A stretch of 29,720 nt of DNA from a virus. The translations under genes were made by a program, and so were the position numbers. The stretch is from the IMG/VR virus record IMGVR_UViG_3300032241_000853, positions 1 through 29,720 of that record. One strand, given 5' to 3'. The notes below the pieces were generated by a model, which was given only the letters and a program-made list of their open reading frames with translations, had not been told where the DNA came from and ran no database searches. Positions within the stretch are counted from its first letter, which is position 1, and every line of letters begins with the position of its first letter. Shown piece by piece: positions 5,864 through 28,517 of the stretch.

Positions 5864-6531
5864 TAGGTTAACTTGAATGCTTTTAAGGTATGTTCAAATG
5901 AATTTCCTTCTAGGTTCTTTATTGACTCTAACATCTCATAAACAATCTCTCTAGTTTCAGTTTGTGCATCAGGTTTCAGTCTTAGTTCAAATAAGTGTAA
6001 GAAAGATAGTAAACTACCAGTCCATATAAATGTTGTGTTTAAATTTAATGGGAGAATTGTTCTTGCTTGCTCTTTTGACACACCCAATTTAATTAGTTCC
6101 TGATAAGCAATTTTACACAGCTCTAGTATATTATTTTCTATTGAACTTGCTTGTTCTGGATTATCTATTACACCTTCACTACCTTGTTTGCTAGATTTAG
6201 ATTGTTTTCTCCACTCTTTGATAGTGGTGTAGCTATCACTGAAATCAACATATCTACCACTAATACTATTGATGGATGAGTTAGGTTCTGGAGGAAGGCC
6301 TAGCTCCATACCTATTTCATGCTTTCTCAACTGCCTCTCTACATATATAGGGCATGTAATTCTAAACTGTAATTGAGGGTGTCTGAACGGAGCTAGGTGT
6401 TTGTGTTCTTTTAAGAATAAGATGAGTTTAGAATCTTTTTCATCTAATACTTCTTTTACTTTATTATAACTCACACGAGCCGCATTGACAATCATCAAGT
6501 CGTTTCCAAAAAAATCTGTTAATTCTACCAT
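5863..6531 (-). CDS. thyX: Flavin-dependent thymidylate synthase ThyX
   Basis: A 222-residue enzyme that makes dTMP from dUMP with FAD, NADPH and methylene-tetrahydrofolate. Family features: N-terminal AARVSYNK; HLAPFRH (residues 45-51), the conserved substrate/FAD-site histidine region; RQLRKH (66-71); INSISGRY (87-94) in place of the signature's xNExSxRY; and a C-terminal block ARTILPLNLNTTFIWTGSL...HLFELRLKPDAQTETRE typical of the family. The usual RHRxxSxNExSxRY motif is split by about 15 residues, and its glutamate is serine. The ATG lies inside the 3' end of a homing-endonuclease gene (7-base overlap). It pairs functionally with the dUTPase at 18761. Confidence 0.9.
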   Translation of the reverse strand: MVELTDFFGNDLMIVNAARVSYNKVKEVLDEKDSKLILFLKEHKHLAPFRHPQLQFRITCPIYVERQLRKHEIGMELGLPPEPNSSINSISGRYVDFSDSYTTIKEWRKQSKSSKQGSEGVIDNPEQASSIENNILELCKIAYQELIKLGVSKEQARTILPLNLNTTFIWTGSLLSFLHLFELRLKPDAQTETREIVYEMLESIKNLEGNSFEHTLKAFKLT

Positions 6532-7478
6532 TCTAATTTGTATTTGTAATTATTAAATTTTTCATTACCAGAAATAAGCCTACTTTTTATAGTTGTTGCA
6601 GGTATGCCTAATGCATCACTGGCCTCTTTTAGAGTCCTATATTCCACTTCCTCAATATAAAACGCCTTGTTGTTACTTGTCTTTTTGCCAATAGAATGTG
6701 CGCTATGCCTTTTATACTGATCTTCTAAGCTGAGAGTCTCTTTTTTATTACCTTTACAGTAATAATCCTTGTACTTAGGATTACTACTCAAACATCTCCA
6801 TCTTATTGTTGTAACATGTAATCCTATGGAGTTAGAAGCTTCTTTAAATGATTTATATTCAATACCCTCTATTATTATGTGGATAGCATTGGCAGGAGTT
6901 CTATTTTTACCGTTTTTCCTTAACTTTTCCTTAGTTTCTTCTGAATGTTTTTTACCAAAAAATGGATTATTTTCCCCGCTTTTAGGTGTACATTTAGAGC
7001 AGTGCTTGTGACCATAACCTATACGTTTGCCACATACGCAATGTATATATGATACACCACCTTTCCAATTAGGATTTTCAGAAAGGGGTTTTGAAAAGTA
7101 TTTCTTTTTTTCCTCTGTAGATAAATTATTCATCCTCTCTATTACTGAGTGTTTAATTTTATCTATAATTGAATCTCTGTTAGGATTCTTAGTTAAATTA
7201 TCCCCTCCACTAGATGTCTTACCTATATTGTAGTAAGAATCTAAGTCTAGGTATTTTTGTTCAATTTCTAATAAATCTTCTTGTATACATTCTTCCACTA
7301 CTTTAAATTCAAAATTATCTTTTCCGTAGAGTATCCAATCTTTTTGCATAAGATAATTTATATGGACGTTTCTATTAAGCTGGCTCATATGTACCCTCCA
7401 TCTCTTTTCTATATTTTTTGAGGATCCATAATAACAGCTTCCAGTAACCTTATTCTCTATCTTGTATATACCAATCAT
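6525..7478 (-). CDS. GIY-YIG homing endonuclease with NUMOD repeats
   Basis: A 317-residue free-standing homing endonuclease. The GIY-YIG domain is at the N-terminus (GIYKIENKVTGSCYYGSS, residues 3-20; R26 and W27 region; E83 region). A cysteine cluster (CVCGKRIGYGHKHCSKC) forms a zinc finger in the middle. Then comes a NUMOD3 motif (NPFFGKKHSEETKEKLRK) and two helix-turn-helix NUMOD-type repeats (EYKSFKEASNSIGLHVTTI and EYRTLKEASDALGIPATTI). It should cut DNA at a long target and copy itself into sites lacking it. No intron is evident, since thyX is intact; the gene overlaps the thyX start by 7 bases. Confidence 0.9.
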   Translation of the reverse strand: MIGIYKIENKVTGSCYYGSSKNIEKRWRVHMSQLNRNVHINYLMQKDWILYGKDNFEFKVVEECIQEDLLEIEQKYLDLDSYYNIGKTSSGGDNLTKNPNRDSIIDKIKHSVIERMNNLSTEEKKKYFSKPLSENPNWKGGVSYIHCVCGKRIGYGHKHCSKCTPKSGENNPFFGKKHSEETKEKLRKNGKNRTPANAIHIIIEGIEYKSFKEASNSIGLHVTTIRWRCLSSNPKYKDYYCKGNKKETLSLEDQYKRHSAHSIGKKTSNNKAFYIEEVEYRTLKEASDALGIPATTIKSRLISGNEKFNNYKYKLEW

Positions 7479-8325: not shown

Positions 8326-9162
8326 TTATTCTTCTAGTCTTTTAATAACATCTTTAATTTGAAGATAGGATGTAACTATAAATGGTACACCAATAAGTGA
8401 GTTACAAAAGTCAAACATGTACCGGTAGGTCGAGAACACACTTCCAATTGTAACCTTGTTGAACATAACATAGTATGTGAGTAAGGCTGTAACGCTTCCA
8501 TATACTATACCCTGTATACTGAGACTGAACCCTGCATCTAACTTAGCCCTTCTTATAGATAGCTTCTGAGAAGACCTGAGTAAGTTATTAATCAAAGATA
8601 TCTTCCTGCTGGATACCACATCTGATTGGTCTTCACTGAGATCATTACCAGCTTTGGTAAGCTCCGCTGCCTTAGGTGAATAGTTGTAGCTTAATCCTGC
8701 TAATGCTGCTCCTGTAAGTAACAGGAGACCTGATAGCTTCCAACTAACCAAAGTTAAGAAATACAAAGAGCCAACAGCACCGAAAGTAGTGTTGAGTACG
8801 GTAACTACGTCAACCTCAAAGAACCTTACTACGTTACCTAACATGTTTATCCTGCCGTTAATCTTGGTGGACTCCACACCTTTTTCAAGTTGTTTTTGTG
8901 TTTCGGTGGAAGCGAACTTCCTGTGGATTCTTGAGAATACTTGTATGTCGTAAATCCTACCGATGTACCCAAATAACATCATCACTGCAAATGTAAGTAT
9001 TAAATACCAGATATAAAAATAATCTTTTGACATTAGATGGTCAATGGTATTGCCCAGTAGTTTAGGGTACGAGATACTCAGTATAGAATTGACAGCAAAC
9101 AAGAAGTAGGACAAGATTATAGACTTCCAGTTATCTTTAAAAAGTGCCTTTAGTTTATCCAT
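8326..9162 (-). CDS. ABC exporter six-TM domain protein without ATPase
   Basis: A 278-residue protein with the layout of one type I ABC-exporter membrane domain: TM1 about 12-35, TM2 about 49-69, then two central spans (about 122-158), and a last pair (about 215-240 and 247-266). Between TM2 and TM3 lies the long cytoplasmic helix typical of the family (RIHRKFASTETQKQLEKG). No Walker A, signature or Walker B motif follows; the frame stops at LKRLEE and the next gene is unrelated. It resembles the ABC_membrane_3 family (ABC six-transmembrane-domain proteins without ATPase) known in bacteria. Role unknown: it might pair with a host ATPase or poison a host transporter. Confidence 0.75.
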   Translation of the reverse strand: MDKLKALFKDNWKSIILSYFLFAVNSILSISYPKLLGNTIDHLMSKDYFYIWYLILTFAVMMLFGYIGRIYDIQVFSRIHRKFASTETQKQLEKGVESTKINGRINMLGNVVRFFEVDVVTVLNTTFGAVGSLYFLTLVSWKLSGLLLLTGAALAGLSYNYSPKAAELTKAGNDLSEDQSDVVSSRKISLINNLLRSSQKLSIRRAKLDAGFSLSIQGIVYGSVTALLTYYVMFNKVTIGSVFSTYRYMFDFCNSLIGVPFIVTSYLQIKDVIKRLEE

Positions 9163-9178
9163 AAATTGTTTATTTAAG

Positions 9179-9256
9179 GAGTCAGGCCGGATTCGAACCG
9201 GGAATAGCTACCACGTTGGGGATTCGGGAACCGCCCCTCATTACGCTCACTGACTC
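9179..9256 (-). tRNA. tRNA-like element, anticodon not assignable
   Basis: A 78-base element with a perfect 7-bp acceptor stem (GAGTCAG / CTGACTC) and a T arm with loop TTCGAAT on a 4-bp stem (CCGG/CCGG, fifth pair C-C). No CCA is encoded; the discriminator base would be C. Between the arms I could not build a normal D arm plus 7-base anticodon loop with U33. Instead 9213-9246 can fold as one long hairpin: GCGT/ACGT, GGGG/CCCC and CGG/CCG pairs capped by TTC. It may be a degenerate tRNA, an unusual one, or a tRNA mimic. It lies between the glycosyltransferase and ABC-domain genes. Confidence 0.6.
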
Positions 9257-19538: not shown

Positions 19539-22301
19539 TTACTCGCAACTTGCACAAGTAAGAAGCTCTTTTGTCAATAATTGAGCTGCATTGAAGTTGT
19601 GTTGATAGTACAATGACTTCAATCCTAGGTCGTGTGCTTTTAGCATAAGTGCGTTCACATCCTTGGCTGTCTTACTGGAGTCTATGTATAGATTGAGAGA
19701 CTGACCTTGGTCTATATGCTTTTGCCTGTGTGAGGCTTGTAAGATTACTTCATCCTGGGATACCTCTTTACCTGTCAAGAATACCCTCTTTTGCTGATCA
19801 CTAAGGAAGTCAAGGTGTAGAACTGACCCATGATTCTTCTTGATTGAATCCCATACATCAGGTGTATTTTTACCTAATGATTCTAGCAATGCTTCTAGGT
19901 ACCTGTTCTTGATAACGAACTTACCTTTAGCCAAATCCTTGATGAAGTAGTTACTGTTCCAGCACTCAATGCTTTGAGATACCTGCCCTAATATAAATGC
20001 AGAGGATGTTGTAGGCGCAATAGCAATCAAAGTACTATTTCTTCTTCCGGTTCCTTTAGTGACTTCACATTCTCCAAACATCTGAGCTAACTTCTCAGAA
20101 GCTGCGTATGCCTGTTCCTTTATTGTCTTTTGGATTTGTATGTTCCAGTTACGAGCTTCTAAGCTTTCAAATGCAACCATCTTACTTTGTAAGAAAGAAT
20201 GGTACCCTAACCTACCTATACCTAATGCTCTGTGTCTCTTGGAGAAATTAACTGCCCGGTCAAAGAACTTGATATTAGATGCCTTCTCAATGAACTCAGT
20301 CATAGCTGCATCTAATAAGAAGGTTACTACCTCTACACAATCTGTATCTTTCCATTCCTCATAGTACAAGTCATTCAAAGATGATAAGTCACACACGAAT
20401 GATTCCTCGTCATTTGATGGTAGGAATATTTCAGAGCAATTAGAGGTTATGAATCCGTTACATACCCACAAATGTTCTTGTGAATCCACCGTAGTACAAT
20501 ACACATCCTCTTTTCCTACATATTCAATTGACGTTATCTTAAAAGATTTTTTTGTGTTGTTTCTGTAATCTCTATTATCTAATACAATACCTTTTCTAGA
20601 CAAGAATCCTGTATTTTTTTCTATTTCTAGGCAATCTGGCATATTTGATACATACAATCTCCAACAATCCTTTGTTTGATACATTTTATAACCACCCCTA
20701 CCGTCAGGTAGGCTATTTTCGCCAGAGAATCTCAAAATCTTTATTTTTGAATTTAAACCTAAATTGTTAAATACTAATTGGAGTTGTTCTAAAAAACTTT
20801 TATCTATGTCAGAATAAGCTAGTTGTATGTTACTGGAACTACCAACATAAACAGTTCCATCTGCCTCTAATAGGCCTTTTATGTAAGACCATTGAGTTTT
20901 CTCAGTACCTTTTAAAATCCAGTCTGGTACAACACCTTTCTTAAAATTTAAAGATTTATTTAATGTCTTTGAGGCTAGCCTTTTCTTTTTTACAGTAGAC
21001 TGATTAACAGTACAATCACTAAATACACTAGGTTTTCTTTCCCTAGATCCTATAATAGTACCTTCAGAATTTTTTATATCATATCTATTACAGTTATACT
21101 TATAGTGAATTTTAGAAAATTTCTTCTGTATATCTTCAAGTAGATCAAAATCATTTTCCCAAACATCTAACATAATTATGTCTTTGTACTGAGTGCCATC
21201 TGACTGATATAACCCTAATAGATAAGCTTCATCCTCCATTTCAATATCACCAAATAACCCTTTTTTAGTCTGTATACAGACCTTGTCTCCTACCACTAAT
21301 TCTTTACATTCTTTCATAATGTACGGTTTATGGTAGTCTTGGTAAATTTTTAATTTATGATAGTCTGTAATAGTATGTGACATGCCATTTTCTAAAGTGA
21401 CTTTATAGACATCCTTATTTTTTTCCACCAATTTCATAGGTGAGGCTTTCACAACTTTTTCGTTATCAAACAAAGTTAAAGCATCACCAAATTCGTACAG
21501 ATCTTGTACTTTAATTAAACCTTTTGATGTTACTGCTACATCAGACCCTACTACACAAAGGTTACTTGCCTTTATCAAATCCTTTCCTTTATATACTTCA
21601 GGAGTTGATTCTCCGTTGTTTGCATTGTCAGTAAAGAAAATGTATGGTAATCCAGTTTCAAATCTTTTTTGTATGACTTTAGCCCATATCTTTCTCTTTT
21701 GCTCATCACCACCCTTCATTTCATTTAACCAATTGGTCGGTACACATACTCCCCAGGTAAGGTGTTGTATTGTGTCCCCTTCACTACGGATGTTTAGCCA
21801 TTCTTCTATATCCTTGTGAAATATATCTATGTAGGCGGCCAAATAACCTCTTCTTGTTGACCCTTGAGAGATTACACCAGTACAAGTTTGGAATAGCTCT
21901 AAGAAAGATTTAGTACCGTTTGAAGTACCATTACCTTTTATCTCCGCTCCTCTAGGTCTTACATCACCCATGTAAAGACCGGTACCACCACCATGCTTAC
22001 TCATGGTACCTATCTCAGCCACTGTAGATAAGATGCCATCCATAGAATCCGGAGCCACTGATGAGAAGCAACTGATAGGTAGTCCTCTATCTGTACCAAA
22101 GTTTGACCATATAGGAGTAGACAAGCTTATCCACCCATTGGCTATATACTGTTGTACTTTAGTGCTGAATCCTTCTATGCCTAGAATCTCTTCAGCTCTA
22201 TCACCTATTACTTTTAATCTTTCTTCTACTGTTTGCCCTGGGAGTAGATACCCACCTTCTAAGAACTGTTGAGATGCTTCGTTAAGCCATTTAATTTCCA
22301 T
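19539..22301 (-). CDS. nrdA: Ribonucleotide reductase large subunit with intein
   Basis: A 920-residue precursor; removing residues 249-621 (intein) leaves 547 residues of class I RNR alpha, which reduces ribonucleotides to deoxyribonucleotides with NrdB. Active-site residues: C78 (LPISCF) and C637 (SFVCDLSSLN) for the redox pair; N247, C622 and E624 in the spliced NLCSEI (radical cysteine C622); RALGIGRLGYHSF; APTTSSAFILGQ; and the C-terminal CASC (C916, C919) that takes electrons from thioredoxin or glutaredoxin. It lacks the long N-terminal ATP-cone region of bacterial NrdA, so allosteric activity control is probably reduced. nrdB ends 1 base upstream; a terminator follows. Confidence 0.95.
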   Translation of the reverse strand: MEIKWLNEASQQFLEGGYLLPGQTVEERLKVIGDRAEEILGIEGFSTKVQQYIANGWISLSTPIWSNFGTDRGLPISCFSSVAPDSMDGILSTVAEIGTMSKHGGGTGLYMGDVRPRGAEIKGNGTSNGTKSFLELFQTCTGVISQGSTRRGYLAAYIDIFHKDIEEWLNIRSEGDTIQHLTWGVCVPTNWLNEMKGGDEQKRKIWAKVIQKRFETGLPYIFFTDNANNGESTPEVYKGKDLIKASNLCVVGSDVAVTSKGLIKVQDLYEFGDALTLFDNEKVVKASPMKLVEKNKDVYKVTLENGMSHTITDYHKLKIYQDYHKPYIMKECKELVVGDKVCIQTKKGLFGDIEMEDEAYLLGLYQSDGTQYKDIIMLDVWENDFDLLEDIQKKFSKIHYKYNCNRYDIKNSEGTIIGSRERKPSVFSDCTVNQSTVKKKRLASKTLNKSLNFKKGVVPDWILKGTEKTQWSYIKGLLEADGTVYVGSSSNIQLAYSDIDKSFLEQLQLVFNNLGLNSKIKILRFSGENSLPDGRGGYKMYQTKDCWRLYVSNMPDCLEIEKNTGFLSRKGIVLDNRDYRNNTKKSFKITSIEYVGKEDVYCTTVDSQEHLWVCNGFITSNCSEIFLPSNDEESFVCDLSSLNDLYYEEWKDTDCVEVVTFLLDAAMTEFIEKASNIKFFDRAVNFSKRHRALGIGRLGYHSFLQSKMVAFESLEARNWNIQIQKTIKEQAYAASEKLAQMFGECEVTKGTGRRNSTLIAIAPTTSSAFILGQVSQSIECWNSNYFIKDLAKGKFVIKNRYLEALLESLGKNTPDVWDSIKKNHGSVLHLDFLSDQQKRVFLTGKEVSQDEVILQASHRQKHIDQGQSLNLYIDSSKTAKDVNALMLKAHDLGLKSLYYQHNFNAAQLLTKELLTCASCE
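20439..21557 (-). mobile_element. Intein with LAGLIDADG endonuclease in NrdA
   Basis: Residues 249-621 of the precursor (373 residues). It starts with the nucleophile C249 (CVVGSDVAVTSKG, the usual block A) and includes a block B-like GMSHTITDYHKLK with the TxxH pattern in HTITDYHK. Two LAGLIDADG-like helices follow (YLLGLYQSDG near 360-369 and YIKGLLEADG near 473-482). It ends in EHLWVCNGFITSN with terminal asparagine N621 and +1 cysteine C622. Penultimate residue is serine instead of the usual histidine, a known tolerated variant. Splicing rejoins NL-CSEI. All essential splice residues are present, so it should be active. Confidence 0.92.
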
Positions 22302-24747: not shown

Positions 24748-25455
24748 CTACAGAATACCCTCCTGCTCTAAGATAGCTCTTACCTTTCCAATAAGATCTT
24801 CAATAGTCCCATCATTAATAATGACATGATCCCAATCTGTAATATGGTCTAGACTAGTCTCAGATGAATGACTGTCTGTTGATACTAAGGATGGCCTTAC
24901 TATCTTAATACATATTCCATTTCGATCTTTAATAGCTTGGAGTTCATTTTCAAAACGAGTGTCACTGACTACCCATTTACTAGGATTGTATTTAGACATT
25001 TTAGGGGATTTGTATTCTGCCATGAGGGCATTTATCCAAGCATCTGTATGCAGTCCCATCCTTATTGCATCGGTGCCTAGCAACTGCAAAAACTGCCTTC
25101 CAGAAGTAGGTATACTGATATGCTCAATGTGTTGATCCCAGTAATCGGGTAGTATACTTTCCTTAAACTCTTTGGTGTACAGATACTGTTCATCCATACC
25201 TAGCAAGATAGATGCTACCTTTCTTAGAGGTCCAGCCCATTTTTTAATTTGATAATCTGATTCATACCAAAGTGTATAGTCATTATACCTGTTCTTACCA
25301 TAAGTAGAAAACTCTTCAAAAGTCCTATAGTGATTACCATCTACACTAGAACATTCACTAGTTAAATACTGAATGATACTAGCTACTAAATCTTTCCCAC
25401 TACTTGCCTTAGCCGTAAGGGATATTAAGTTGTTATTCTTCATACTATTCATCAT
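24748..25455 (-). CDS. Deoxynucleoside monophosphate kinase
   Basis: A 235-residue P-loop kinase of the T4 gene 1 type, phosphorylating dNMPs (in T4 dTMP, dGMP and hydroxymethyl-dCMP) to dNDPs. Visible: P-loop SLTAKASSGKDL (13-24), GRQFLQLLGTDAIR with HTDAWINAL (nucleotide site), VVSDTRFENELQAI (Walker-B-like segment with acidic residue) and HSSETSLD. Length and motif order match the family. Start ATG at 25455; a second in-frame ATG lies at codon 2 and another at codon 5 (MMNSMKNN), so the exact N-terminus is uncertain. Overlaps the RNA ligase by 11 bases. Confidence 0.85.
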   Translation of the reverse strand: MMNSMKNNNLISLTAKASSGKDLVASIIQYLTSECSSVDGNHYRTFEEFSTYGKNRYNDYTLWYESDYQIKKWAGPLRKVASILLGMDEQYLYTKEFKESILPDYWDQHIEHISIPTSGRQFLQLLGTDAIRMGLHTDAWINALMAEYKSPKMSKYNPSKWVVSDTRFENELQAIKDRNGICIKIVRPSLVSTDSHSSETSLDHITDWDHVIINDGTIEDLIGKVRAILEQEGIL

Positions 25456-26506
25456 TTTTTAACAAAAACTTGTTACTGATCACTTTAAAGCTTAGGTTGT
25501 CTTCTACACACCTCAGTACTACACCTTCTCTTTCTGTACTACTATTTAACTTTGACTTACCTTCTGCATATTTAAGTAGCTCTGGTAAAGTATGATTCAA
25601 CTCAAATTGACCTAAGAGAGGGCAGCAAGGTATGTTATATTGAGTACATATTTGATAAAACGTATCCTGTGTAAGACGTTTGCCATTTATTTGTATGTTA
25701 AACAGCCTTATTTCATTTTGAGTTAGTCTATATTTATTCCCTTGAGGTTTTCCTATATACTCCCCTTGTACAACTACGTTGTTAGTGTTAAAGTGCTTAG
25801 CAAGTAAGTCTATATACTGCTTAAAGTTTGTATCTACAAATACACGATACCATTCATTGTCAGTATTGAATAATTCAAATCTCCTACTACATAAACGATA
25901 TTTACTCTTATTCCATTTCTTCTCATGAATTATGGTGATGCTACTACCATCTAACTTCTCAGCAGCCACAAACATTTTACCTTTATAAGTGTCTAATACT
26001 CTGGGTATATTTTGTATACGCTCTTCGTCTGTGATAGATACCACATCTTTAGGAAAACCATTTCTGTTGACAACCTTAGCCCACGGAAAAAGCTTAACCA
26101 ATACGTTATATTTTAGCTTATACCACAGCTTTTTATACCATACCTTTGGCATTTTAGGCCTAGACTCTGACACTTCCTTATCTTTTGAGTACTTTTTGAT
26201 ACCTAATACTTCTGTAAGATCATCTCCTTCTTTCCATTTACCTTCAGGAAGGGGGACTATTAACCCTTGGCTAATTTGACCACGGAGTTTTATACTTCGA
26301 ACTCTAAAATTTCTTGGTCTTAAGAATTCGAACTCTTCTTTCTCTGGGGTTACAGTGTCAATTTGAATGTAACTCACTAGTTGCCCTACTTGGAATTCGT
26401 CTTTCTTGACTACTATATTCCAACCAAGTAATTGGGCTGTAACAATTGAATCTGCCCCTTCTATAGGAGTCAGTGCTGTTACCCTTTCTACGGACGCTAA
26501 CTTCAT
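25445..26506 (-). CDS. RNA ligase, DRB0094/Rnl5 family
   Basis: A 353-residue nucleotidyltransferase-type ligase. An N-terminal OB-like domain (about 1-105) precedes the adenylation domain, the order seen in Deinococcus Rnl (DraRnl). Motif I is EKLDGSS with K184 for AMP attachment; motif III region LCSRRFELF; motif IIIa GEYIGK; motif IV EGVVLR (about 329-334); motif V FKVISNKF. Members of this family seal 3'-OH/5'-phosphate nicks in RNA, so it may repair RNA broken during host defence or stress. No companion end-healing enzyme (T4-type Pnkp) is in the window. A promoter-like site lies in the preceding gene (26588-26618). Confidence 0.9.
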   Translation of the reverse strand: MKLASVERVTALTPIEGADSIVTAQLLGWNIVVKKDEFQVGQLVSYIQIDTVTPEKEEFEFLRPRNFRVRSIKLRGQISQGLIVPLPEGKWKEGDDLTEVLGIKKYSKDKEVSESRPKMPKVWYKKLWYKLKYNVLVKLFPWAKVVNRNGFPKDVVSITDEERIQNIPRVLDTYKGKMFVAAEKLDGSSITIIHEKKWNKSKYRLCSRRFELFNTDNEWYRVFVDTNFKQYIDLLAKHFNTNNVVVQGEYIGKPQGNKYRLTQNEIRLFNIQINGKRLTQDTFYQICTQYNIPCCPLLGQFELNHTLPELLKYAEGKSKLNSSTEREGVVLRCVEDNLSFKVISNKFLLKNDE

Positions 26507-27560: not shown

Positions 27561-28517
27561 TTAACTGCTCTGCGAAGATAGGTAATCTGAATAATACTTC
27601 CAAATGAAACCTCCGCAGGTCTTTCTTCTTATACCTTTTATGGCTGCATATATGTTACTGTCAGATATATTTAGAGATCTTCCAGCTAACTTTGCGTTTT
27701 CCCAAATATGTACTAATGTATTTGTTCTTATGTCTATTTGACAAATTTTATCTTTACAGTCACTTATTTCATATTCCCATTTAAACCCTTTGTATTTTAA
27801 TATCCTACCTTTACATACTGCAGATATCTTGTTCTTATCTAATCTAAGGCTTTTGCAAGCTTCTGTTATACTACTCCAAGTTTTAATTACCTTGAGAGTT
27901 TTAAGACAAATTTGATTTATCTTTAAACCGGTGGTATTGATAGTCTTTTTAATATCATCCAATAAAGGTTCGTCAAATTCACATTTATACCTAAAATAGT
28001 AGCCCGATACTTTATGCGTTTTTGTACGACAAGCTCCACTAACAGAAGAAGGATGTCTGTTTAAATAACTAGCCGCTACTTTTGTGGAAGGAAATTCCAT
28101 AAGCCTAACGCCATTTTCTCCATACATAACAACTGATTTACCACTCGATTCACTTTGTCTTATTTTTGTCTCTTTTGAGACAACTCTAGGTATATCATCA
28201 TACCCAGGAAGTACTAGATTTAACCCCAACTTAAAATCCAATACATTATACCTATCACCAAACATGCGTTCCATCTTTAACATGTCCCCTATAAACCCTT
28301 CCCATATAACTTCATACATGTGATTTTCCGAACCATACTTCTTAAGTGAATTGTGTAATTTAACCTGAGCTTTACAGTTGTAGTTTTTGTAATGAAGCCA
28401 TCTATTTTCTATTTTCATACAGGTACTCCCTATATAAACTCTTCCACTAGGACTCGTTATCTTGTAGACCTTCCCTATTTTTTCTTTTTTGGTAGGATGC
28501 TTTAACTCTTTCATCAA
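27561..28517 (-). CDS. GIY-YIG homing endonuclease with three NUMOD1-like repeats
   Basis: A 318-residue free-standing homing endonuclease. The N-terminal GIY-YIG domain reads GKVYKITSPSGRVYIGSTCMK (the Y-I and Y-I-G strands), followed by RWLHYKNYN with the conserved arginine and E88 (MERMFGDRYN). C-terminally three NUMOD1-type DNA-binding repeats follow: VVMYGENGVRLMEFPSTKVAA, ICLKTLKVIKTWSSITEAC and ICQIDIRTNTLVHIWENAK, each ending in an xGxxWKY-like strand. The enzyme should cut DNA at a specific site and spread by repair. It sits between recA-like and exonuclease genes, both intact or nearly so, thus no intron is evident. Two ATG codons at the start; either may be used. Confidence 0.88.
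   Translation of the reverse strand: MMKELKHPTKKEKIGKVYKITSPSGRVYIGSTCMKIENRWLHYKNYNCKAQVKLHNSLKKYGSENHMYEVIWEGFIGDMLKMERMFGDRYNVLDFKLGLNLVLPGYDDIPRVVSKETKIRQSESSGKSVVMYGENGVRLMEFPSTKVAASYLNRHPSSVSGACRTKTHKVSGYYFRYKCEFDEPLLDDIKKTINTTGLKINQICLKTLKVIKTWSSITEACKSLRLDKNKISAVCKGRILKYKGFKWEYEISDCKDKICQIDIRTNTLVHIWENAKLAGRSLNISDSNIYAAIKGIRRKTCGGFIWKYYSDYLSSQSS
27574..27605 (-). promoter_or_regulatory. Promoter of the 5'-3' exonuclease gene
   Basis: Minus-strand TTTG (27602-27605), 20 bases, then TATCTTCG (27574-27581), followed 23 bases later by the exonuclease ATG. Same -7 and spacing as at 15264. It overlaps the last codons of the homing-endonuclease gene. Confidence 0.6.

What the first reader, a model, noticed from the sequence alone, without database searches (positions are those of the whole stretch)
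9179..9256. tRNA-like RNA with one long hairpin instead of D and anticodon arms
The acceptor stem (7 perfect pairs) and T arm (TTCGAAT loop) are clear, but no normal anticodon arm with U33 can be built. The middle (9213-9246) instead folds as one irregular hairpin with GCGT/ACGT, GGGG/CCCC and CGG/CCG pairs and a TTC cap. This is the general plan of tmRNA and viral tRNA mimics, and it could act as a decoy or a binding site rather than as a decoder. A degenerate tRNA is the plain alternative.
Basis: partly seen in the sequence, partly recalled or inferred. Interest (0 to 1): 0.6.

Follow-up and report, generated by a model that had tools for sequence, protein, structure and literature searches.

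The report
Phage tRNA-like RNA without an anticodon
This is one copy of a widespread, apparently undescribed family of small phage RNAs that copy the ends and elbow of a transfer RNA but have no anticodon, so they probably occupy tRNA-handling proteins instead of helping to read the genetic code.

Summary
The element is real and lies on the minus strand (9256→9179). It is not a dying tRNA but a member of a conserved phage RNA family. A covariance model recovers about 140 IMG/VR loci. The window scores 75 bits (E=2.6e-18), members score 47.5 bits or more, and canonical tRNAs at most about 40. The family shares a 7-bp acceptor stem, a T arm, and an almost invariant core GYGUAAUGAGG…GG…CCRARUCC…GGUUGC. 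A reversed-motif control gives 7 hits against at least 119.

Covariation supports the acceptor stem, the T arm, a D-arm-like hairpin (GGN…N'CC with GG in its loop) and a short variable hairpin where the anticodon arm should be; a small helix holding those two arms is weakly supported.

Members sit in phage tRNA arrays, on the same strand as the nearest tRNA (85/85), often 2-14 nt away, with the same 3' trailer, so they are probably processed like tRNAs. The tested Rfam families (tRNA, tmRNA, YrlA) do not claim it, apart from one member scoring 29.1 bits against the 29-bit tRNA cut-off. The best-supported idea is a non-decoding tRNA mimic acting in trans. Its target is unknown, and expression is untested.

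The parts
9179..9256 (-). whole tRNA-like RNA, 78 nt (RNA position i = window 9257-i)
   Evidence: R2 covariance model 75.2 bits, E=2.6e-18
9250..9256 (-). acceptor stem 5' strand GAGUCAG
   Evidence: 7/7 pairs with compensatory changes in the family, 99.4% of cells paired
9179..9185 (-). acceptor stem 3' strand CUGACUC
9236..9246 (-). near-invariant core GCGUAAUGAGG (helix P2 5' strand, junction, start of hairpin A)
   Evidence: 74 of 101 members found by a pattern that did not require it carry it exactly; most of the rest are GUGUAAUGAGG
9245..9247 (-). helix P2 5' strand AGC, pairs with 9206-9208
   Evidence: C-G/U-G/U-A and G-C/G-U variation, about 96% of cells paired; mostly one-sided changes, so weak
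9206..9208 (-). helix P2 3' strand GCU (end of conserved GGUUGC, here GGUAGC)
9226..9237 (-). hairpin A, D-arm-like: GGG-GCGGUU-CCC, family GGN-(RN.GGY.)-N'CC
   Evidence: third pair is C-G/G-C/A-U/U-A, 48 of 90 sequences with both sides changed; loop GG at 9231-9232 is 97/97 and 89/97 G
9222..9225 (-). conserved joining segment GAAU (family RARU)
9211..9221 (-). hairpin B at the anticodon-arm position: CC-CCAACGU-GG in the window; family CC(N)..(N)GG with variable loop
   Evidence: CC/GG becomes CU/AG in 3 members, third pair A-U/U-A/C-G; loop length 2-13
9187..9201 (-). T arm CCGG-UUCGAAU-CCGG
   Evidence: variable pairs covary, invariant GG/CC and loop UUCRANU
9173..9178 (-). 3' trailer CTTAAA, no encoded CCA; like the canonical tRNA of the sister phage (ATTAAA)
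9285..10742 (-). upstream co-directional gene, family 1/4 glycosyltransferase
   Evidence: PF00534, PF20706
8326..9162 (-). downstream co-directional gene, ABC-transporter membrane domain
   Evidence: PF13748

Best explanation
A non-decoding tRNA-like RNA encoded by phages, most likely of Bacteroidota. Shown by comparative sequence: a tRNA-type acceptor stem and T arm, a D-arm-like hairpin A with GG in its loop, a short variable hairpin B instead of an anticodon arm, and a near-invariant core. Weakly shown: a small extra helix P2 that closes the two hairpins. Inferred: it is cut out of tRNA transcripts by host RNase P/RNase Z and given CCA; the GG of hairpin A docks on the T loop to make a tRNA elbow; the particle then acts in trans by occupying a protein or ribonucleoprotein that recognises the acceptor/elbow half of tRNA (a tRNA-processing, tRNA-repair or defence factor), without reading codons. 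The target is not identified.
For: Homologues by R1/R2 models. Pattern scan >=119 stretches against 7 for the reversed motif. Covariation 301 doubly changed cells against 88 in shuffles, score 0.452 against 0.155. Loop GG and UUCRANU T loop near invariant. Nearest canonical tRNA on the same strand in 85/85 loci, gaps of 2-14 nt common. 3' trailer N-C-A-A like the phages' own tRNAs. Hairpin B variable in length. Acceptor sequence and the base after it vary, which argues against one fixed amino-acid identity. No recurring neighbouring protein gene over the family, which points to an RNA acting by itself.
Against: No expression or biochemical data. Single-sequence folding does not favour the conserved fold (window -16.8 against -25.0 kcal/mol; hairpin A in 21 of 97 minimum-energy folds). 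P2 and hairpin A rest on few variable pairs. The window copy is not in a tRNA array but alone between two genes, and its only close relative is identical over all 78 nt at a level about 24% of 78-nt windows reach by chance. The trans-acting step is inference.
Confidence: 0.6

Rival explanations
1. Degenerate tRNA gene: an ordinary phage tRNA that is losing its D and anticodon arms.
For: No tRNA caller recognises it; middle folds no better than shuffles.
Against: About 140 loci in distinct phages share a near-invariant core and covarying helices; decay would not keep GCGUAAUGAGG while the acceptor sequence changes in pairs.
Confidence: 0.03
2. A decoding tRNA of very unusual shape, with hairpin A or B serving as anticodon arm or matured by RNA editing or splicing.
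For: It lies in tRNA arrays and keeps tRNA ends; other phage tRNAs here have 6- or 8-nt anticodon loops; with one bulge an 8-nt loop UUCCCGAA with U33 can be drawn in the window.
Against: Loop lengths vary 5-7 (A) and 2-13 (B) and hairpin B sequence is free; no position behaves like a conserved anticodon.
Confidence: 0.1
3. A phage Y RNA: partner of a Ro60/Rsr protein, like bacterial YrlA, whose tRNA-like domain mimics tRNA.
For: A full-length Ro60 (TROVE) gene lies in the contigs of three members (L204, L236, L286), in one case 227 nt downstream on the same strand; YrlA is a known tRNA mimic (PMC8394870).
Against: TROVE in 3 of 97 family records against 2 of 50 non-family records. YrlA model RF02553 matches neither the window at E<=1 nor eight members at E<=5. 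In L314 and L315 a different tRNA-like hairpin lies directly before Ro60 and is the better Y RNA candidate. The ends form the acceptor stem, leaving no separate Rsr-binding stem.
Confidence: 0.08
4. A cis-acting element: tRNA-like punctuation that makes RNase P/Z cut the polycistronic message between the glycosyltransferase and ABC genes, or a leader element for the next gene.
For: In the window it sits in a 122-nt gap between co-directional genes, 16 nt before the next start codon.
Against: Elsewhere it is in tRNA arrays with no recurring neighbour gene; punctuation would not need the invariant central core.
Confidence: 0.12
5. A minimal tmRNA-like ribosome-rescue RNA, with GCG-UAA-UGA in the core as a tag remnant.
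For: Acceptor and T arm without anticodon, as in the tmRNA tRNA-like domain.
Against: No RF00023 match; the acceptor has G3-C70 not G3-U70; some members have UAAUAAGG or UAAAAAGC instead of UAAUGAGG; some related phages encode a normal tmRNA.
Confidence: 0.02

Closest known systems
Canonical tRNA (RF00005)
   Same: 7-bp acceptor, T arm with UUCRANU, tRNA-array location, same 3' trailer
   Different: No anticodon arm; extra small helix (weakly supported) between acceptor and the D-like arm; window not detected by RF00005, one member reaches 29.1 bits against cut-off 29
Bacterial Y RNA YrlA (RF02553)
   Same: tRNA mimic with acceptor, D-like and T arms, not a decoder; Ro60 genes in a few of the same phages
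   Different: No RF02553 match; open acceptor ends instead of an Rsr-binding stem; 72-85 nt rather than 90-150 nt (PMC8394870)
tmRNA tRNA-like domain (RF00023)
   Same: acceptor and T arm without an anticodon arm
   Different: no tag reading frame, no G3-U70, two short arms instead of a long helix
Plant-virus tRNA-like structures (e.g. tymovirus, RF00233)
   Same: viral tRNA mimic; elbow mimicry is the common theme (review PMC4810234)
   Different: separate small RNA gene in a DNA phage, no pseudoknotted acceptor, no match
Pseudo-tRNA tRNA-Other of Bacillus cereus (from memory, not tested)
   Same: tRNA-like RNA kept by selection without an ordinary decoding role
   Different: different sequence and host; no comparison made here

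Membership tests
canonical tRNA | 7-bp acceptor stem and T arm | tested here: met
   (window T stem 4 bp + mismatch)
canonical tRNA | anticodon arm: 5-bp stem, 7-nt loop, U33 | tested here: not met
canonical tRNA | D arm with GG in loop | tested here: inconclusive
   hairpin A has a 3-bp stem and loop GG; docking on the T loop not testable
canonical tRNA | RF00005 score at or above 29 bits | tested here: not met
   window no match; one of the members examined at 29.1 bits
canonical tRNA | aminoacylation | not testable with these tools
   needs wet experiment
tmRNA | RF00023 match and tag reading frame | tested here: not met
   ARAGORN none
tmRNA | G3-U70 alanine identity pair | tested here: not met
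   window G3-C70; family third pair mostly U-A
bacterial Y RNA / YrlA | RF02553 match | tested here: not met
   window E<=1 none; eight members E<=5 none
bacterial Y RNA / YrlA | Ro60/Rsr gene nearby | tested here: not met
   3/97 family against 2/50 non-family records; none in the 29.5-kb sister record
bacterial Y RNA / YrlA | 5' and 3' ends form a long stem distinct from the tRNA-like module | tested here: not met
   ends form the 7-bp acceptor; -1:+1 often T-A but no longer stem seen
plant viral tRNA-like structure | match to Rfam TLS families | tested here: not met
   no match in the window or at member positions

The most novel reading that the evidence does not exclude
A dedicated class of phage non-decoding tRNA mimics, matured from tRNA arrays, whose conserved central domain captures a host tRNA-binding factor (for example a tRNA-targeting defence effector or a tRNA-processing enzyme) during infection: a mechanism not assigned to any known phage RNA.
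Probability: 0.35. Interest if true: 0.9.

Novelty: new variant of a known kind. Interest (0 to 1): 0.7.

Why it matters
tRNA arrays of large phages are usually explained by codon supply or by replacing tRNAs cut by the host. An invariant tRNA-shaped RNA without an anticodon inside those arrays cannot be explained that way and points to a second use of tRNA shape in infection. Because the family is widespread, has a tight sequence core and is missed by the tRNA finder and RNA library used here, annotators will have skipped it; a covariance model now makes it searchable and its partner testable by pull-down.

Tried and rejected
Exact and relaxed DNA patterns around the window copy and blastn against cultured phages found only the sister contig, an unrelated odd tRNA in L119, or T-arm fragments of ordinary tRNAs. 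The first pattern contained an extra base and was useless. The two flanking proteins gave relatives without the RNA beside them. ARAGORN with relaxed score drew an implausible tRNA-Gly(ccc). The single-sequence fold and its z-score misled: the minimum-energy fold is not the conserved one. Conservation between window and sister phage alone is uninformative. Ro60 partnership looked attractive after but did not survive the controls. A coding role of AUGAGG was rejected by inspection because indels break the frame between members. RNA ligase co-occurrence (15 of 46 records) was not controlled and is not used. Ten phage records related by GroEL or helicase, mostly from Bacteroidota, have no member (best 28.4 bits).

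Full report
What was checked. The stretch 9179-9256 was read on both strands. All larger genes of the window (glycosyltransferase, ABC membrane domain, GroEL, DNA polymerase A, ribonucleotide reductase with intein, DnaB-type helicase, RNA ligase, RecA-like) run on the minus strand, and the RNA reads on that strand as GAGUCAG-UG-AGCGUAAUGAGGGGCGGUUCCCGAAUCCCCAACGUGGUAGCUAUUC-CCGG-UUCGAAU-CCGG-C-CUGACUC. It fills most of the 122-nt gap between the glycosyltransferase gene and the ABC gene. ARAGORN and Rfam find nothing, and no 7-nt anticodon loop with U33 exists.

It can be drawn, and the minimum-energy fold is similar, but the middle is no more stable than dinucleotide shuffles. With one nearly identical sister contig (IMGVR_UViG_3300032265_000589; 78/78 identical, flanks about 96.5%) nothing more could be said: about a quarter of all 78-nt windows between these two phages are identical.

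Finding the family. A covariance model built from the window copy found a 74-nt homologue in another phage contig (G033, 41.5 bits). The two share the motif GCGUAAUGAGG and most of the middle. A second pattern that did not ask for the motif (CCGARTCC…GGTTGC…T arm) gave 100 stretches; 74 of 101 matches carry GCGTAATGAGG exactly and most others GTGTAATGAGG. So the conservation of the core is not a product of the first search.

Model and separation. Model R2 (20 sequences) scores complete members at 47.5-92.9 bits, most of them above 54; the window scores 75.2 bits, E=2.6e-18. Canonical tRNAs in the same phages and in related phages score at most about 37 bits, and host tRNA-Gln(CUG) genes of Bacteroidota at most 39.6. 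Regular-expression counting gives 142 loci. Eight members were scanned against Rfam with E up to 5 and no family matched at their positions; one further member reaches RF00005 at 29.1 bits, just at the cut-off. Ten phage records chosen for related GroEL or helicase genes, mostly phages of Bacteroidota, contain no member.

Conserved structure. On 97 aligned members (90 distinct) the proposed structure is paired in 94.1% of cells, with 301 doubly changed cells against 88 in shuffles and a covariation score of 0.452 against 0.155; sliding any strand destroys it. By element: acceptor 7 of 7 pairs covary; T arm, three variable pairs covary and two are invariant; hairpin A (GGN…N'CC), third pair C-G/G-C/A-U/U-A with 48 doubly changed sequences; hairpin B (CC…GG), second and third pairs covary; helix P2 (N-G-Y with G-Y-N) shows mainly wobble changes and one U-A, so it is the weakest. 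The alignment was fitted to the model, so the percentage paired leans towards it; the covariation of variable pairs and the first MAFFT alignment are less affected. Folding energies do not favour the conserved fold, so tertiary contacts or a protein are probably needed.

Anatomy. Hairpin A has 3 bp and a 5-7-nt loop with an almost invariant GG; it lies 5' of hairpin B as a D arm lies 5' of an anticodon arm, and the T loop keeps the residues that bind D-loop GG in tRNA. An elbow is therefore likely but is inference. Hairpin B is free in sequence and its loop in length (2-13 nt), so it cannot hold an anticodon. Unpaired invariant segments (GUAAUGA, RARU, UU) form the centre.

Genomic setting. 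In 85 of 142 loci ARAGORN finds canonical tRNAs in the held DNA; the nearest is on the same strand in all 85, median distance 179 nt, with many gaps of 2-14 nt. Same-strand placement is usual in phage arrays, so it shows co-transcription rather than a special link. The 3' trailer starts N-C-A-A in most members (C in 79 of 90), as in the phages' own tRNAs (C in 488 of 535); in the window phage both types lack that C (CTTAAA and ATTAAA). No protein gene recurs beside the RNA over the family. Some records carry two copies (L190 with L299; L301) and more diverged copies stand next to others (L177, L237). The two members found in bacterial assemblies are a phage contig (L250, major head protein and RusA) and a 4.3-kb contig of a Saprospiraceae MAG (L263). 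The nearest cultured relatives of the window phage by helicase and GroEL are Flavobacterium phages (38.8% and 44.6% identity), so a Bacteroidota host is likely.

Ro60 and Y RNA. Because bacterial YrlA is a tRNA mimic tied to Ro60 (PMC8394870, PMC7790460) and some jumbo phages carry TROVE proteins (PMC7824862), TROVE was sought: 3 of 97 family records and 2 of 50 non-family records have it. In the two examined, a second, distinct tRNA-like hairpin lies directly before the Ro60 gene. The family is therefore not filed under Y RNA.

Mechanism. Shown: conserved tRNA-like architecture without an anticodon, in tRNA arrays. Inferred: processing by tRNA enzymes, elbow formation, action in trans on a tRNA-binding partner. 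The variable acceptor sequence and the variable base after it speak against a single amino-acid identity. Candidate partners (tRNA-cutting defence effectors, tRNA repair, RNase P or other elbow binders; review PMC4810234) cannot be ranked from sequence.

Novelty. The core sequence appears in no relevant paper of the held library, but key subscription papers (Chen 2014, Wang 2018, Sim 2020) and large surveys of phage structured RNAs were not held. Absence from Rfam 15 was tested by cmscan on the window and eight members.

Noticed in passing
L314 2609-2680 (-) and L315 1089-1161 (+): A second tRNA-like element with a hairpin such as GUCCUGCUUGACUGCGCAGUCCAGGAC lies directly upstream of phage Ro60 genes in two contigs; a candidate phage Y RNA distinct from this family.
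   Followed up: partly
L121 4860-4930 (sister phage contig G001): Its only canonical-like tRNA has an 8-nt anticodon loop (CCCTG TATTGTAA CAGGG) and an extra base in the acceptor stem; possibly a four-base-codon reader or another altered tRNA.
   Followed up: no
L119 3152-3238 (-): A 216.9-kb phage carries a tRNA-like gene with the same acceptor sequence GAGTCAG/CTGACTC and no clear anticodon, inside a cluster of tRNAs with a tmRNA (tag DAYAYSFAA).
   Followed up: partly
L118 2240-2624 (+): Phage-encoded tmRNA with an unusually long predicted tag AEELSSFTFEDAMSFVGADYAVAA.
   Followed up: no
window 19539-22301 (-): Ribonucleotide reductase interrupted by a LAGLIDADG intein; GIY-YIG homing-type genes at 6525-7478 (Pfam match) and 27561-28517 (by inspection).
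   Followed up: partly
window 8326-9162 (-): ABC-transporter membrane domain (PF13748) encoded without a Pfam-detected nucleotide-binding domain; 60-67% identical copies occur in phage contigs up to 362 kb, many with tRNA arrays nearby.
   Followed up: no
window 25445-26506 (-): RNA ligase (PHA02142/RNA_ligase); RNA ligases also occur in 15 of 46 records that carry the tRNA-like RNA, no control done.
   Followed up: partly
L084 12039-12115, L088 12143-12220 and 12446-12539, L089 6697-6773: Several tRNA-array phages carry ARAGORN tRNA-??? genes with 6- or 8-nt anticodon loops.
   Followed up: no
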